A DNA stretch of 64,000 nucleotides from Phycisphaerae bacterium (GTDB lineage: Bacteria; Planctomycetota; Phycisphaerae; Phycisphaerales; Phycisphaeraceae). The notes beneath the pieces are model-generated. The model did no database searches, was not told where the DNA came from, and saw nothing but the letters and a program-made list of their open reading frames with translations. Shown here piece by piece: positions 27,410 through 33,227 of the stretch. The stretch is from the NCBI GenBank assembly GCA_030425705.1, contig JAUHZU010000001.1:186001-250000 (forward strand), in the 5' to 3' direction. The stretch's first letter is position 1; each line of letters begins with the position of its first letter. A program made the position numbers and the translations under genes.

Positions 27410-28339
27410 TCAGCGTCGTCGGCGGAGCAGGGGGAACGCGGCGAGGGCGAGGAGGGCGAGGGAGGAGGGCTCGGGGACGCCGTTGACGAAGCCCTCGCTG
27501 AACTCGAGCTGGTAGTAGCTGGCGAGGTCGAAGGTGTCGGCGCCCATCATCTGGTCGAAGGTGGCCTGGTCGAAGGTGAAGACGGGGTCGGTGCTGGCGG
27601 TGGCGCTGCCGGTGTATTCGCCGGCGTTGATGACGTCGGTGATGCCGATGTTGATCGAGGCGCGTTTGTAGAAGTAGTTGGGGTCGTCGGTGCTGAGGGT
27701 GATCGTGGCGCTGGACACGACGGGGTCGGGCATGGCGATGCCGCTGCTGCTGGCGATGAGCTGTGCGATGTGCGGGTTGCCGATGCCGACGACGCCGAAG
27801 GTGGCGGTGGCGGAGGCGGAGACGGGTTGGCTGGCGGAGGCGGTGGCTTCGAGGTTGAAGTACGCGATGACGGGGATGTCGCCGTTGTAGCCGGCGGGGT
27901 TGGCGGCGGTGGCGACGGGGTTGACGGCGAAGATGATCTCGCCGCGAGCGGCGAGGACGTAGTTGGGCAGGGCGTTGCCGTCGGGTGATTCCGGGATGTA
28001 GGTGACGGTGAACTCGCCCTGCACGGTGGCGAGAGCGGGCGAGACGAATTCGCCGTTGGTGCCGACGATGCCGCCGTTGATGTTGACCGAGGCGGTGAGC
28101 TGTGCAACGAGTTCGCCCAGGTCGTCCTGGGCGTTGATGAAGCCCGAGCCGTCAAAGGCGTTGCCCGAGGCGACGACGTCTTCGCTGATCGGGTCGACGA
28201 TGTTCGCGCCGAATCGCGTTGCCTGCAGGTCGACCGAGCCGGTGGTCGGCTCGGCGGCGGCGGGCAGGGCGGCGCAGAGCGCGGCCAGCGTGACGGCGGG
28301 TGCGGACAGGCGCGGACGGCGGATGTGTGGTGTGTGCAT
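27410..28339 (-). CDS. PEP-CTERM exported protein
   Basis: A 309-residue exported protein. GGGGAG lies just before the ATG at 28339 (MHTPHIRRPRL). The signal peptide has a hydrophobic core and LPAAAEP cleavage region. The body is a beta-rich, Ala/Thr/Ser-rich domain without recognised motifs. The C-terminus is GVPEPSSLALLALAAFPLLRRRR, a standard PEP-CTERM exosortase signal. It is divergent from the PEP-CTERM gene at 28642. Confidence 0.8.
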   Translation of the reverse strand: MHTPHIRRPRLSAPAVTLAALCAALPAAAEPTTGSVDLQATRFGANIVDPISEDVVASGNAFDGSGFINAQDDLGELVAQLTASVNINGGIVGTNGEFVSPALATVQGEFTVTYIPESPDGNALPNYVLAARGEIIFAVNPVATAANPAGYNGDIPVIAYFNLEATASASQPVSASATATFGVVGIGNPHIAQLIASSSGIAMPDPVVSSATITLSTDDPNYFYKRASINIGITDVINAGEYTGSATASTDPVFTFDQATFDQMMGADTFDLASYYQLEFSEGFVNGVPEPSSLALLALAAFPLLRRRR

Positions 28340-28641
28340 GGTTCTCCCCACATTGAGATGTTGGACCGGGGATATCGTAGCGGGAGGCGACGGATCGACC
28401 TAGGGCTTTTGGTGAAGCGGGCTTGGGAGCGGGCGTGTGGTGGCGGTGGTGTCTGTTCTGCCGTGTTGAGCTTGCCCTGTTTAGCAGGGCGGGTTGAAGC
28501 GGGGGTGCTGGGGCGGGTTTCCCGCGGGCGGACTCGCTGGGTGGGTCGGGGCAAGAAAGTGCTGGCCATCCGGGGCGGATCCGGTAGCATGGGGGTGGTT
28601 CATTTGGGGATCCTTTCACCGGCGAAGCAGAGAAGAGAACC
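28340..28641. other. Divergent intergenic region between two PEP-CTERM genes
   Basis: This roughly 300-base spacer must hold both promoters, but no convincing -35/-10 pair was found. A 6-bp hairpin (GCCCTG, loop TTTAG, CAGGGC) lies at 28474-28490. Nothing else is recognised. Confidence 0.4.
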
Positions 28642-29250
28642 ATGCGGAGCGAGAACACCCTGGGGTGTGTGTTGGCGTTGGTGTGCCCGGCGGCGGGGGC
28701 GTGGGCGGGTTCGACCAACTACAGCGACCTGGTGAGCTGGGAGGCGGCGGTGTCGGCCCCGGTGACGCTGGTCGATTTCGACGGCCTGACGAACGGCACA
28801 CTGGCGGGGGGCATGGACTTCGGCCCCGGCGCGGTGGTGCAGGACTACCAGGGGCTCGCGACCTCGCCGCGCGTGGACAACGACTCGCCCTACGGCGGGG
28901 GCTGGCTGACGAACCGGAACAACCCGGGCTTTGACGAGTTTGTGAACGGCTTCCGTATCGACTTCACCACGCCGGTCTACGCGGTGAGTCTGCTGGATAA
29001 TCCCAACGAGGCGAACCGGCTGCGGCTGTACGACGCGAACGACCAGCTCGTCGGGGAGATGAGCAACACGACGGGGCAGAACTTCCTGGGCATCGTGACG
29101 GACACGCCGGTGGCGTACATGACGGTGGTGAACCTGCCGCCGGAGGACGGCGCGTTCGCGATCGACGACCTGCGTTTCGCGGTGCCCGAGCCGGGGTCGC
29201 TGGCGCTGCTGGGCCTGGGCGGCTGGACGCTGCTGCGGCGACGGCGGTAG
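28642..29250 (+). CDS. PEP-CTERM exported protein
   Basis: A 202-residue exported protein with a short signal peptide (CVLALVCPAAGAWAG). The body begins with YSDLVSWEAAV and VDFDGLTNGTLAGGMDFGPG, resembling the jelly-roll VPxxxF-type choice-of-anchor domains, and includes RLRLYDANDQLVGE. The tail VPEPGSLALLGLGGWTLLRRRR is a canonical PEP-CTERM signal. GAAGAGAA provides a weak ribosome-binding site. Function unknown. Confidence 0.82.
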   Translation: MRSENTLGCVLALVCPAAGAWAGSTNYSDLVSWEAAVSAPVTLVDFDGLTNGTLAGGMDFGPGAVVQDYQGLATSPRVDNDSPYGGGWLTNRNNPGFDEFVNGFRIDFTTPVYAVSLLDNPNEANRLRLYDANDQLVGEMSNTTGQNFLGIVTDTPVAYMTVVNLPPEDGAFAIDDLRFAVPEPGSLALLGLGGWTLLRRRR

Positions 29251-29273: not shown

Positions 29274-30293
29274 CTAAGGCGTTTCCGGCGCGTTGCGGTC
29301 CCGGCGAGCGCGGGGGTTGTCGGGGTTGCGGCGGCGGCGCTGGTCGCTCATGGGGCGGTCGGACATGCGGATCGCTTCTTCCCACGTGATGCCCTGGTCG
29401 TGGCCGGCGGCGACGTGCGCTTCGTAGGGCAGCTTCTCGAACGTCGCGGCGAAGGTGTCGAGCGCGCCGTGCAGCGCGGCCTGCTGATCGGCGAGTGGGG
29501 CGGAAGGGTCGAGCGTGCCGATCACGGCGGCGGACCGGCCGAACGGTTCAGGCTGGAGGATGACGACGCCGGCCTCGGTGTCCGGCAGGTCGGGGACGAA
29601 GGCGCGAAGCTCGGCCGCGTCGTCGTGGGCGAAGTCCCAGTGGACCCGGCCGATGAAGTCGGGCGACCAGGCGAGCGCGCGGAGCTGCGCTTCGTAGGCG
29701 GCGCAGGTCTCGGCGTCGGGCCCGTAGGCGAGGACCAGCGGCCGGCCGTCGCAGGCGGCGAAGTTGATCGCCTCGCGGACGGCGGAGAAGTCGGGCGTGT
29801 GCGCGGGGGCGTCGGGCTGCCGGTCGGGGTAGCCGTCGGCGATGCGGTGTAGGGATTCAACGATGTCGCGGCCGGCAAACGCGAGGCGGGGCGAACGCGC
29901 GGGCCGGGAGAGCCGGGTCTCGCCGTCGGGCGCATAGAGGACGAAGACGGTATTGAGCAGGCTGCCGTCCATCAGCACCATGGACCGGTCCATGTTGGCC
30001 TGGTTCTCGTAGCTGTCGAGCCGGACGCAGACGTAGTTTCGGGTGGCGTCGATGAAGGTCTGAGAGAAGAAACTCTCCTCTGTCTGGGTGTAGCCCTCTC
30101 AGAACACGCCGGACACGCCCCGGCAGGCGGGGCGGACGAAGTAGAGGAGGATGGGGCGCTGGCTGCGCTCGGCCTCGGCGCGTGCGGCGTCCCAGTCGCC
30201 GTACCACGCGACGCCGGGCTCGACGGCGGGTGGCTGGGTTTCGGCGGGTGCCGCGGTGAAGGCGGACAGCACGAGCAGGGCAGGGATGAGCAT
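29274..30293 (-). CDS. Exported thioredoxin-like protein interrupted by an in-frame TGA
   Basis: Read across a single TGA (30099-30101), this is one continuous 339-codon frame. A signal peptide (MLIPALLVLSAFTAAPAE) leads to VAWYGDWDAARAEAERSQRPILLYFVRPAC, the typical opening of a thioredoxin-fold protein, with C57 at the usual first active-site region. The TGA is codon 65, followed without frame change by EGYTQTEESFFSQTFI, NYVCVRLDSYE and a beta strand NTVFVLYAPDG, then a C-terminal extension and arginine-rich tail. Both halves look coding. The TGA is either selenocysteine (an inverted repeat brackets it), a nonsense mutation or a sequencing error. Without readthrough the downstream half could only start at an internal ATG. 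Confidence 0.6.
30059..30103 (-). promoter_or_regulatory. Inverted repeat bracketing the in-frame TGA (possible SECIS)
   Basis: On the mRNA strand TCTGAGAG (containing the TGA) pairs perfectly with CTCTCAGA 29 bases downstream, giving a hairpin of about 45 nt with the UGA in its base and the apex about 20 nt downstream. That geometry resembles the bacterial fdhF SECIS, though the apical part is only weakly paired. Confidence 0.3.
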
Positions 30294-30777: not shown

Positions 30778-31124
30778 GGCCGGGGGGCTGTGCAGTGCTC
30801 GTCAGGCGTTGGGGCACGTCATTGACCGTTGGCCATTAGCCATAACGCGTTATGTGCAATACGTCACAATAGGGGGTTTAGGGAAATGCGAATCGCGAAT
30901 CGCCAGCCGTCTGCTCGGCCGGTTCGCCGAGCCGACACCGGGGTACGGCGACAGCAGGCCGCCACTACATCTACTAATCGCCTCTCGCGGCGTCTTGAAA
31001 TGGGCCCAAGAAAAAAAATCGGATCCGATGTCCAAGGTTGAGGGTCTCGCGCCTTATAAAGGTGGGGTTCTTGTGCGTGCCCCCCGCTTTGCACTGTCTC
31101 ACTGTCACTTCATGGAGTAGATTG
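30778..31124. other. Intergenic region with a perfect 14-bp palindrome
   Basis: This 347-base, AT-richer spacer precedes a PEP-CTERM gene. It contains CATAACGCGTTATG at 30841-30854, a perfect palindrome that could be an operator, and a direct repeat GCGAATCGCGAATCGCC near 30885-30905. No convincing gene, terminator or promoter hexamers were found. Confidence 0.4.
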
Positions 31125-32252
31125 ATGTCCACGCCCCTTGCCCTGACCCGTTTTGGAACGCTCGCCCTCGTCGCCGCGCTGCCCGCGGCCGGTGCCTTCG
31201 GCGAAGCCCTGCTGTCGTCCGGCGACTTCATCATCGCGATCGACCACAGCCTCAACCCCTCCAGCAGCTACCCGGGTGGTGAGCCCCCGAGCGCCGCGAT
31301 CGACGGGGACGACTTCTCCAAGTACCTGAACTTCGGTGGCTCGGGCTCGGGCTTTATCGTGACCCCCGGCAGCAGCGTCATCCAGAGCATGCTGCTGGTC
31401 ACCGGCAACGATGCGCCGGGCCGTGACCCCCTCAGCTTCGAGCTCTACGGCACAAACGATGCCATCACAAGCACGGACAACAGCCTTGGCAACCTCGAGA
31501 ACTGGCAGCTGATCAGCAGCGGTGGCCTGGCCCCGCCCGCCGGCCGCAACACCGCGTACCCCACGGTCGATTTTGCGAATGCCATGTCGTTCTCCTCGTA
31601 CCAACTGATCTTCCCGACCCTCAGCGGCGGGCCCACCGAGACCCTCATGCAGATCTCCGAGGTCCAGTTCTTTACGGGCTTGGGCGGCGCGGGCTCGGCG
31701 GTGCTCAATTTCAACGACCCGATTATCGCGATCGACACCATCACGACCCTCTCGCCCGCGGCCGAGAGTGCCGCCAACCTGCTCGACGGCGATACCAGCA
31801 CCAAGTGGCTCAGCTTCGGCCAGGACGGCAGCGGCGTCATCGTGACTCCCTCCGGCGGGCCGTCCACCGTGGTGGCGATGCAGCTCGCCACCGCCAACGA
31901 CTTCGACGTCCGTGACCCTACGAGCTTCGAGATCTATGGCACCAACGACGCGATCACCTCCTCGGAAAACAGCGAAGGCAACAACGAGAACTGGGTGCTT
32001 ATCGACTCCGGCTCGATCTCCCTGCCGACCGACCGCGAAACCCTTGGCGACGTGATCCTGATCGACAACGACACCGCCTACACCAGCTACAAGATCGTCT
32101 TCCCGACGATCGTCGACAACAGCGGTGTCTTCCCGGCCGACTCGCTGCAGATCTCCGAGCTCCAGCTCTTCGACGAGGTGCCGATCCCCGAGCCCGGCTC
32201 GCTCGCGCTGCTCGGCCTCGGCGGGCTCGCGCTGCTTCGCCGCCGCCGCTGA
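31125..32252 (+). CDS. PEP-CTERM exported protein with two discoidin-like domains
   Basis: A 375-residue exported protein (signal peptide MSTPLALTRFGTLALVAAL...AFGEA). Two tandem domains of about 160 residues share DGDDFSKYLNFG / DGDTSTKWLSFG, SMLLVTGND / AMQLATAND, DPLSFELYGTNDAITS / DPTSFEIYGTNDAITS, and end ISEVQFF / ISELQLF. This is the galactose-binding (F5/8 type C, discoidin) pattern, suggesting carbohydrate or surface binding. The C-terminus is a PEP-CTERM tail. The last 78 bases of its 3' end are nearly identical to those of the next gene. A terminator follows. Confidence 0.85.
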   Translation: MSTPLALTRFGTLALVAALPAAGAFGEALLSSGDFIIAIDHSLNPSSSYPGGEPPSAAIDGDDFSKYLNFGGSGSGFIVTPGSSVIQSMLLVTGNDAPGRDPLSFELYGTNDAITSTDNSLGNLENWQLISSGGLAPPAGRNTAYPTVDFANAMSFSSYQLIFPTLSGGPTETLMQISEVQFFTGLGGAGSAVLNFNDPIIAIDTITTLSPAAESAANLLDGDTSTKWLSFGQDGSGVIVTPSGGPSTVVAMQLATANDFDVRDPTSFEIYGTNDAITSSENSEGNNENWVLIDSGSISLPTDRETLGDVILIDNDTAYTSYKIVFPTIVDNSGVFPADSLQISELQLFDEVPIPEPGSLALLGLGGLALLRRRR

Positions 32253-32283
32253 GCCGGCAACAGATTGCGTGTCATCTCCTCCT

Positions 32284-32312
32284 GGCCGTCCCGTCTCCAC
32301 GGGGCGGCTTTT
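32284..32312 (+). terminator. Rho-independent terminator
   Basis: GCCGTCCCG and CGGGGCGGC form a 9-bp stem (one G-T pair), loop TCTCCA, followed by five T residues, 31 bases after the discoidin-like PEP-CTERM gene. Confidence 0.8.
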
Positions 32313-32496
32313 TCTATGCACCAGGGTCCAAGGCGACCTCTTGGCCGTGACGCGGTGAGACAGAGTGGGCTACAAACAGCAAAAAACGTCGCTTCGGACC
32401 TGTTTTTTACTACCTCTTCCCGGTTCGCTCAGGTAGACTTTATATCGTTGTGTTTCTATGGCACGGCGACGCATATCGCATCGATCGATTCATCTC

Positions 32497-32502
32497 AGGA
32501 GG
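32497..32502 (+). promoter_or_regulatory. Strong Shine-Dalgarno AGGAGG
   Basis: AGGAGG lies 8 bases before the ATG at 32511 and fixes that start. Consensus-quality sites are rare in this window. Confidence 0.85.
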
Positions 32503-32510
32503 CCACGAGA

Positions 32511-33227
32511 ATGATACGCTATCTTTCCACATCGGGTGCCGCGCTGGCGTGCGCCCTGGTCGTGCCCGGTGCCGCGGACGCAACGCTGCTCGACGACGGC
32601 GCGTTCGACAACGCGACCTCCGGCTCCACCACCAGCGGCAGCGCCTGGCAACTGATTACCAACATGCCTGATGGTGCAAACCTGGGAGCCCAGTTCCAGA
32701 CCGGCTTCGCCAACGCCAACAACACCGGTGTCGGCGGCACCCAGGCCCCCGGTGTCGGCACCGGCATCTGGCTCCGCTCTTTCGAAGGCAACCAGGGCAA
32801 CACCGGCGAAGCACTCGCGCAGATGGTCCTGACCCAGTCTGTCTTCGCCGCTGTGGACGGCGACTATGTGCTCGACTTCGTCGCCGGGCGTGAATCCATG
32901 TTTACCGCGCGCGTCTTCGAGGTCACCCTCTCCACCAACAGCCAGTCCGTTACCGTCGACCTGCTCACCGCGGTCATCCCCGATGGCAACCTCGGCGGCG
33001 CGGCCTCGGGCAACCCCGGCGGCACCCCCTTCCAACTCACGCTCACCGGCGTCACCACCGGCGAACTGGTCACCGTCACCGCCACCATGCTCGACGGCGA
33101 AGACTCCCAGGTCCCCGGCGGACAGTCCGCCTTCCTCGACGACTTCGAGCTCAACGTCATCCCCGAGCCCGGCTCGCTCGCGCTGCTCGGCCTCGGCGGG
33201 CTCGCGCTGCTCCGCCGCCGCCGCTGA
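32511..33227 (+). CDS. PEP-CTERM exported protein
   Basis: A 238-residue exported protein with the best ribosome-binding site in the window. A signal peptide (ALACALVVPGAADA) is followed by LLDDGAFDNATSGSTTSGSAW and a beta-sandwich domain with carbohydrate-binding-module-like features: GQFQTGFANANN-type turns, DGDYVLDFVAGRE, and SAFLDDFELNVI just before the tail. The PEP-CTERM tail (IPEPGSLALLGLGGLALLRRRR) is shared almost base for base with the preceding gene. Function unknown; surface or extracellular matrix placement is inferred from the tail. Confidence 0.85.
   Translation: MIRYLSTSGAALACALVVPGAADATLLDDGAFDNATSGSTTSGSAWQLITNMPDGANLGAQFQTGFANANNTGVGGTQAPGVGTGIWLRSFEGNQGNTGEALAQMVLTQSVFAAVDGDYVLDFVAGRESMFTARVFEVTLSTNSQSVTVDLLTAVIPDGNLGGAASGNPGGTPFQLTLTGVTTGELVTVTATMLDGEDSQVPGGQSAFLDDFELNVIPEPGSLALLGLGGLALLRRRR

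What the first reader, a model, noticed from the sequence alone, without database searches (positions are those of the whole stretch)
29274..30293. Thioredoxin-like exported protein with an in-frame TGA bracketed by a perfect inverted repeat: selenoprotein candidate or decaying gene
Seen: codons on both sides of a single TGA (codon 65) are in one frame, and both halves look like one thioredoxin-fold protein. TCTGAGAG containing the TGA pairs perfectly with CTCTCAGA 29 bases later, placing the UGA at the base of a hairpin of about 45 nt with apex about 20 nt downstream. Known: bacterial SECIS elements (for example fdhF) lie directly after the UGA with similar size. Against: the inner stem is weak and no Cys-x-x-Sec is formed.
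Basis: partly seen in the sequence, partly recalled or inferred. Interest (0 to 1): 0.65.

Follow-up and report, generated by a model that had tools for sequence, protein, structure and literature searches.

The report
Unlisted exported bacterial selenoprotein family
The stop codon in the middle of this bacterial gene is almost certainly read as selenocysteine, the rare 21st amino acid: dozens of related genes carry the same stop at the same place followed by the same RNA hairpin, and together they form a selenium-protein family that I could not find in current catalogues.

Summary
All 55 homologous copies found that span the codon, from 15 numbered families, have TGA there, with open frames around it. 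A search of 397 genomes of the own class added one more TGA copy and the only exception: in the query's own order, Cys (TGC) at this column, hairpin lost, no selA match in the genome. The window's genome has selA, selB, tRNA-Sec (UCA) and a selD that itself carries a TGA. The true SECIS is a 7-bp stem with an AGUUU loop at 30081-30063, kept by compensatory changes (358 of 378 pairs; 1000 codon-preserving shuffles reach at most 275). The protein looks exported and thioredoxin-like, with invariant Sec65 and Cys89 and near-invariant Cys57 (C-x7-U, not CxxU). No NCBIfam model fits (best 14.8 bits, cut-off 300), and a 2026 catalogue of 119 prokaryotic selenoprotein families does not list it. Redox function is inferred, not shown.

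The parts
29274..30293 (-). selenoprotein gene: 339 residues with Sec at position 65, TAG stop at 29276-29274
   Evidence: reading frame; homologues over most of the length
30099..30101 (-). TGA codon 65, read as selenocysteine
   Evidence: TGA in 55 of 55 homologous copies plus L114; TGC in L116
30063..30081 (-). SECIS hairpin: 7-bp stem AGAGGAG/CTTCTCT, loop AGTTT (30074-30070)
   Evidence: 358 of 378 pairs kept in 54 members, at most 275 in 1000 codon-preserving shuffles; covariation score 0.459 against 0.193 shuffled
30237..30293 (-). putative signal peptide (about residues 1-19)
   Evidence: hydrophobic start with an AxA-like site, judged by eye, no predictor run; many other members also start with a hydrophobic stretch
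29976..30209 (-). N-terminal thioredoxin-like domain (residues 29-106) holding Sec65
   Evidence: Pfam Thioredoxin_7, E 6.7e-5, under the curated cut-off; 24 of 28 members match at E up to 0.1
30123..30125 (-). Cys57, eight residues before Sec65, candidate resolving residue
   Evidence: Cys in 51 of 53 members
30027..30029 (-). Cys89, candidate resolving residue or redox partner
   Evidence: Cys in 53 of 53 members
29436..29789 (-). C-terminal second thioredoxin-like domain (about residues 169-286), tentative
   Evidence: single-sequence AlphaFold2 model, block pLDDT 50-86 here, strand/helix order like a thioredoxin fold; Foldseek only weak thioredoxin-fold matches, best E 8.5e-3, none at 0.001
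30096..30103 (-).
30059..30066 (-).

Best explanation
The gene encodes an exported thioredoxin-like selenoprotein of a family not listed in the sources searched. UGA codon 65 is decoded as selenocysteine by the genome's own SelA/SelB/SelD/tRNA-Sec system. A 7-bp, AGUUU-looped bacterial SECIS, whose stem starts 17 nt after the UGA inside the coding sequence, directs this (shown by comparative genomics, not by experiment). After export (inferred from the N terminus) the selenol of Sec65 most likely acts as the nucleophile of a thiol/selenol redox reaction such as peroxide or disulfide reduction. The oxidised selenium would be resolved by Cys57 or Cys89 (inferred from conservation alone). The confidence given is for selenocysteine decoding; for the redox role I would say about 0.7.
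For: TGA at the same column in 55 of 55 homologous copies spanning it, never TAA or TAG, although the query shares only 27-37% identity with the other 27 rows of A2. One Cys homologue at that column (TGC, L116), in the query's own order; its hairpin is lost (4 of 7 pairs, -2.0 kcal/mol) and its 98%-complete genome has no selA match. dN below dS over the 59 codons after the UGA in 13 of 13 close pairs, which share some members. SECIS: 358 of 378 pairs against a mean of 250 (sd 8.3) in 1000 codon-preserving shuffles; 46 cells changed on both sides against 13.2 shuffled; covariation 0.459 against 0.193 shuffled and at most 0.147 slid. It fits the published bacterial SECIS limits (PMC13188914 passages). 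Sec machinery: selA 451 bits, tRNA-Sec 64.9 bits with anticodon UCA, selB 345 bits, selD 362 bits. selA in 39 of 40 family-bearing genomes tested against 4 of 40 without the family. U65 and C89 in 53 of 53, C57 in 51 of 53.
Against: No expression, labelling or mass data. One family-bearing genome, G132, has no selA match in two searches (340 contigs, 92% complete). The selA comparison is confounded by kinship: the genomes without the family all come from the query's own family and order. [quoted passage not shown] One of five covariation measures, the number of pairs with a change on both sides (5), is reached by 70 of 500 shuffles. Catalytic role, substrate and resolving residue are inferred; the neighbourhood gives no clue, and the single-sequence models of the Sec domain are poor.
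Confidence: 0.95

Rival explanations
1. The TGA is a nonsense mutation or sequencing error and the gene is decaying.
For: A single TGA in an otherwise open frame is what an early pseudogene looks like.
Against: The same TGA in 55 of 55 homologous copies from 15 numbered families, never TAA or TAG; dN below dS after the UGA in 13 of 13 close pairs of relatives; covarying hairpin, present in the query too; Cys at this column in the carrier genome without selA.
Confidence: 0.01
2. TGA is read as tryptophan or by unspecific read-through, not as selenocysteine.
For: 52 of 55 copies have C after the TGA, a context recalled as leaky.
Against: The preceding Trp is TGG in 53 of 55 copies; selA and selB have no in-frame TGA; the hairpin is conserved with covariation and is lost in the Cys homologue; the one alternative residue found is Cys, not Trp.
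Confidence: 0.02
3. It is a selenoprotein, but only a divergent branch of a family already named: Trx7/PDZ (NF041199) or VPGUxxT (NF041382/NF041383).
For: These are its nearest NCBIfam models; all share a Thioredoxin_7-type start, and many members have a V-P-G tripeptide shortly before the Sec.
Against: The query scores 13.0-14.8 bits against cut-offs of 275-350, while L087, L090 and L089, members of those families found in the same survey, score 419, 394 and 365 bits. The Sec position differs (C-x7-U and mostly U-P-G-[KY] against VPGU or CxxU).
Confidence: 0.1
4. The Sec is not a redox nucleophile but a metal ligand (for example for mercury or copper) in an exported metal-handling protein.
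For: No CxxU or UxxC motif; Sec is retained in all but one copy found; metal- and mercury-related selenoproteins are catalogued (PMC13188914 Table 1).
Against: Thioredoxin-like domain with an invariant Cys; no neighbour gene recurs widely that would point to metal handling (rough, neighbours not annotated).
Confidence: 0.2

Closest known systems
VPGUxxT family thioredoxin-like (seleno)protein, types 1 and 2 (NF041382, NF041383)
   Same: Thioredoxin_7-like N-terminal domain; Sec shortly after a V-P-G tripeptide in many members
   Different: Query scores 13.0 and 13.9 bits against cut-offs of 350 and 275; here two more residues, the second Trp or Phe, separate V-P-G from the Sec, which is mostly followed by P-G-[KY]; Cys57 lies in an added loop
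Trx7/PDZ domain-containing (seleno)protein (NF041199)
   Same: Thioredoxin_7 start, in-frame UGA; also occurs in this phylum (L087, L090)
   Different: 14.8 bits against 300; no PDZ match in Pfam for the query
Ordinary thioredoxin-like proteins with CxxC (example L091, Burkholderia multivorans, WCPSC)
   Same: Alignable over the N-terminal domain (hhalign probability 97%)
   Different: This family has 8 extra residues at the active site; whether Cys57 or Sec65 takes the place of the first Cys of CxxC depends on how the Sec column is coded
Bacterial SECIS model (passages of PMC13188914)
   Different: Nothing outside the model for the query; 3 of 54 members lack G in the first two loop positions; the AGUUU-like loop is family-typical

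Membership tests
bacterial selenoproteins | in-frame UGA conserved, or replaced by Cys, in homologues | tested here: met
   55 of 55 TGA, plus L114 TGA and L116 TGC
bacterial selenoproteins | SECIS directly after the UGA, within the published model | tested here: met
   limits from PMC13188914 passages
bacterial selenoproteins | selA, selB, selC, selD in the genome | tested here: met
bacterial selenoproteins | selenium present in the purified protein | not testable with these tools
   needs 75Se labelling or mass spectrometry
VPGUxxT family (NF041382/NF041383) | score over the curated cut-off | tested here: not met
   13.0 and 13.9 bits against 350 and 275; member L089 scores 365 with NF041383
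Trx7/PDZ family (NF041199) | score over the curated cut-off | tested here: not met
   14.8 bits against 300; members L087 and L090 score 419 and 394
Thioredoxin_7 (PF13899) | score over the curated cut-off | tested here: not met
   query 23.4 bits against 27; 24 of 28 members match at E up to 0.1, best 2.5e-7
classical thioredoxin | CxxC, CxxU or UxxC active site | tested here: not met
   nearest upstream Cys is 8 residues before U in 51 of 53 (9 and 11 in the others); the residue at U+3 is K, Y or F in 53 of 53

The most novel reading that the evidence does not exclude
A selenoprotein family that is almost always Sec-encoded (56 Sec copies to 1 Cys copy found), with a C-x7-U plus distant-Cys active site not among the motifs listed in the 2026 catalogue, doing extracytoplasmic chemistry that thiols replace only rarely. 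Discovery methods built on Cys/Sec pairs would tend to miss it.
Probability: 0.4. Interest if true: 0.75.

Novelty: new member of a known kind. Interest (0 to 1): 0.62.

Why it matters
Several discovery methods rest on Cys homologues, and the 2026 review states that nearly all selenoproteins have them, usually in larger numbers (PMC13188914 sections 6 and 8); the deep-Sep authors say that their method may not correctly identify those that lack them (PMC12013277 passage). This family is the reverse: found in 50 of 392 genomes sampled across its phylum, nearly always Sec, with one Cys form found. It is a ready case for asking why Sec is kept. Standard gene calling should cut these genes in two at the UGA (seen here for the query). 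The one apparent Sec-to-Cys change, in a genome without selA, offers a direct comparison of the two chemistries.

Tried and rejected
First genome-contig scan with the query alone: 181 stretches, no relative. Second scan: the tool chose only a Cys-form motif, 34 stretches, none a homologue; that motif would not have matched the Cys homologue found later (GMWCPGKV), so it is no proof that Cys forms are absent, and I dropped my early idea (note) of a family without Cys forms. SelB-wing_2 Pfam search failed but TIGR00475 found selB. Plasmid tblastn: three Burkholderia hits; the one I read, L091, is an ordinary WCPSC thioredoxin-like protein. Viral contigs: two pattern matches, L092 in a frame full of stops, L093 without the peptide motif. 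Rfam on the locus: one match at E 0.93, chance. PDB by sequence profile: best E 0.12. AlphaFold2 single-sequence models: mean pLDDT 50.0 and 42.4, Sec domain unusable; Foldseek weak. Neighbourhood of 21 loci, rough ORF calling, 25 largest clusters viewed: apart from overlapping frames of the gene itself no gene recurs in more than 4 of 21, mostly among members of one numbered family. Text searches for the motif and for selenoproteins of this kind gave no description of this family (listings only). In PMC4807772 and PMC1088965 I read passages; the table of candidate planctomycete selenoproteins of PMC4807772 is a supplement I could not read. The groundwater study cited in the review was not read.

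Rows dropped before counts: of 67 aligned rows, the duplicate query row, L077, L079, L080 and the second L075 frame (no column) and L083-L087, L089, L090 (other thioredoxin-like proteins) were left out, giving 55. L012, L013, L081, L082 and L088, weak hits, gave no row. The SECIS count also drops L075 (frameshifted), giving 54; conservation counts use 53 (also without L078). L114 and L116 came later and are outside these counts. One search was given 40 of the 51 family-bearing genomes then known (G000, one of the 51, was tested). In some searches at most five candidates per genome were scored, so carriers and Cys forms may be undercounted.

Full report
Where and what. The gene lies on the minus strand, 30293 to 29274, 339 codons plus a TAG stop, with one in-frame TGA at codon 65 (30101-30099). 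Standard ORF calling splits it: the downstream part is listed as a 239-residue ORF starting at a later ATG (29993). The N terminus looks like a signal peptide (by eye). Pfam gives a sub-threshold Thioredoxin_7 match across the TGA. A PEP-CTERM protein in the window, others by eye, and the kind of relatives suggest Planctomycetota to me, but that is recalled and was not tested.

Machinery. The genome (98.7% complete) has selA at C14:665069-666160 (451 bits), tRNA-Sec directly after it at 666251-666346 (64.9 bits; ARAGORN: anticodon UCA), selB at 662826-664715 (345 bits with both pieces) and selD at 658047-658976 (362 bits). selD itself carries one TGA in its N-terminal GGUAGK motif, so this genome appears to use Sec elsewhere too. 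selA and selB have no in-frame stop, so TGA is not a general sense codon.

Homologues. In the family search 4 of 51 genomes matched; apart from the query only G032 was a true homologue, and it has a TGA. A two-row profile over 392 genomes of the phylum gave 54 matches of 100 bits or more in 50 genomes and 15 numbered families (my count from its table; 68 genomes matched at E up to 0.001, the rest fragments or other thioredoxin-like proteins). Of the 54, 52 span the codon; the other two are a contig-end fragment (G378) and the downstream half of a frameshifted copy (G102). Adding G032, a 97.8-bit fragment (G234) and the upstream half of the G102 copy gives 55 copies with the column, and 55 of 55 have TGA. 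The codon before is TGG (Trp) in 53 and TTC (Phe) in 2. In 53 full copies Sec65, Cys89, Arg91, Glu96, Asn114 and Arg133 are invariant, and Cys57 is kept in 51. In the 28-row alignment the query shares 27-37% identity with the others. Over the 59 codons after the UGA, dN is below dS in 13 of 13 close pairs, some sharing members.

The Sec/Cys change. A search of 397 genomes of the own class found 3 carriers at E up to 1e-15: the query, G516 (TGA, hairpin 7 of 7 pairs, selA present) and G598, in the query's own order, with TGC at the column (GVSGMWCPGK). G598 is 98% complete and has no selA match (selB and tRNA-Sec were not searched there), and its sequence at the hairpin position forms 4 of 7 pairs with a fold of -2.0 kcal/mol. 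In a tree of 55 rows the Cys form falls inside the Sec forms (fork 94/81, below the starred threshold, long branch), which suggests that Sec was lost there; the query and G032 are sisters (99/97). Two further class searches, of 29 and 17 genomes, gave only TGA copies and two fragments that do not reach the column. Searches scored at most five candidates per genome, so absence from a listed genome is not proof.

The SECIS. In 54 members a 7-bp stem sits 20-38 nt after the first base of the UGA, with a 5-nt loop: AGTTT 25, AGTCT 9, AGTTA 9, AGTGT 4, others 7; [quoted passage not shown] 358 of 378 pairs form, while 1000 sets of synonymous codons drawn by each gene's own usage give a mean of 250.3 (sd 8.3, maximum 275); summed energy is -591 kcal/mol against -236 (sd 20, 200 sets). 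On the alignment (52 distinct rows) 94.5% of cells pair, 46 cells changed on both sides against 13.2 shuffled, and the covariation score is 0.459 against 0.193 shuffled and at most 0.147 when slid; the number of pairs with a double change, 5, is less telling (70 of 500 shuffles reach it). RNAalifold finds the same helix unaided, with one more outer pair. Amino-acid changes keep the pairing: the query's TEESFFS codons give AGAGGAG/CTTCTCT where most members have stems of the kind GGACAGG/CCTGTCC or GGACCAG/CTGGTCC. [quoted passage not shown] PMC13188914 passages).

Occurrence of selA. 39 of 40 family-bearing genomes tested have selA (one, G326, only a contig-end piece of 62 bits), against 4 of 40 without the family, G516 and G000 also have it. 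The exception G132 was negative twice. The comparison is not corrected for kinship: the 40 without the family are all from the query's family and order.

Family status. NCBIfam release 20.0 has no model for it: best 14.8 bits (cut-off 300) for the query, and over 28 members no model did better than E 3.5e-4. As positive controls, related proteins picked up in the same survey score 365-419 bits with the Trx7/PDZ and VPGUxxT models. The 2026 review's Table 1 (PMC13188914, section 7, parts 1 and 2 of 3 read, which hold the whole table) covers by its own count 119 families/subfamilies; I saw none with this motif or with PF13899. Text searches found no description (listings), but the library holds only openly licensed papers, and the supplement of PMC4807772, which lists candidate planctomycete selenoproteins, could not be read.

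How it may work (inferred). The N-terminal domain aligns with thioredoxin-like CxxC proteins but has 8 extra residues at the active site. With the Sec column coded as Cys, hhalign puts Sec65 on the first Cys of CxxC; with the column masked it puts Cys57 there. So which residue replaces the classical nucleophile is open. Sec65 with invariant Cys89 and nearly invariant Cys57 fits a selenol enzyme resolved by a distant Cys, such as a peroxidase or thiol-disulfide reductase. A single-sequence model suggests a second thioredoxin-like domain in the C-terminal half, with weak PDB support (best E 8.5e-3). Apart from overlapping frames of the gene itself, no neighbouring gene recurs in more than 4 of 21 loci (rough).

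Verdict. A real selenoprotein gene (0.95), in a family that appears unlisted; ordinary decoding machinery, unusual active-site spacing, function unproven (redox role about 0.7).

Noticed in passing
L084:1259-2125 (-) and L086:971-1894 (+): Two more exported-looking proteins of relatives with an in-frame TGA (motifs UGGC and YUPSCW) and no NCBIfam match at E up to 0.001: further unnamed selenoprotein candidates. L084 matches Thioredoxin_7 just under its cut-off; L086 has no Pfam match at E up to 0.001.
   Followed up: partly
L087:950-2224 (+), L090:941-2215 (+): Members of the Trx7/PDZ family (NF041199) with two in-frame TGAs three codons apart (FRUEPUKDC); the 2026 catalogue gives one Sec and CxxU for that family.
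   Followed up: partly
L014 (own genome C14:658047-658976): selD is itself probably a selenoprotein: TGA in the N-terminal GGUAGK motif.
   Followed up: partly
L053 (own genome C14:655000-671606): selD, selB, selA and tRNA-Sec lie within about 8.3 kb in this order on one strand.
   Followed up: partly
L064, L066 (same numbered family f70): Two members lack Cys at the Cys57 position (nearest upstream Cys 9 or 11 residues before the Sec) and have UKG instead of UPG: natural variants for testing the role of Cys57.
   Followed up: no
L075 (G102): One copy of the family gene is frameshifted roughly 15 codons after the Sec codon, with the SECIS stem still complete: a recent pseudogene or assembly error.
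   Followed up: no
window 28642-29250 (+), 31038-32252 (+), 32265-33227 (+), 27410-28351 (-): Several neighbouring proteins end in PEP-CTERM-like sorting signals (Pfam match for 31038-32252; none at E up to 0.001 for 27410-28351; three of the four by eye only).
   Followed up: no
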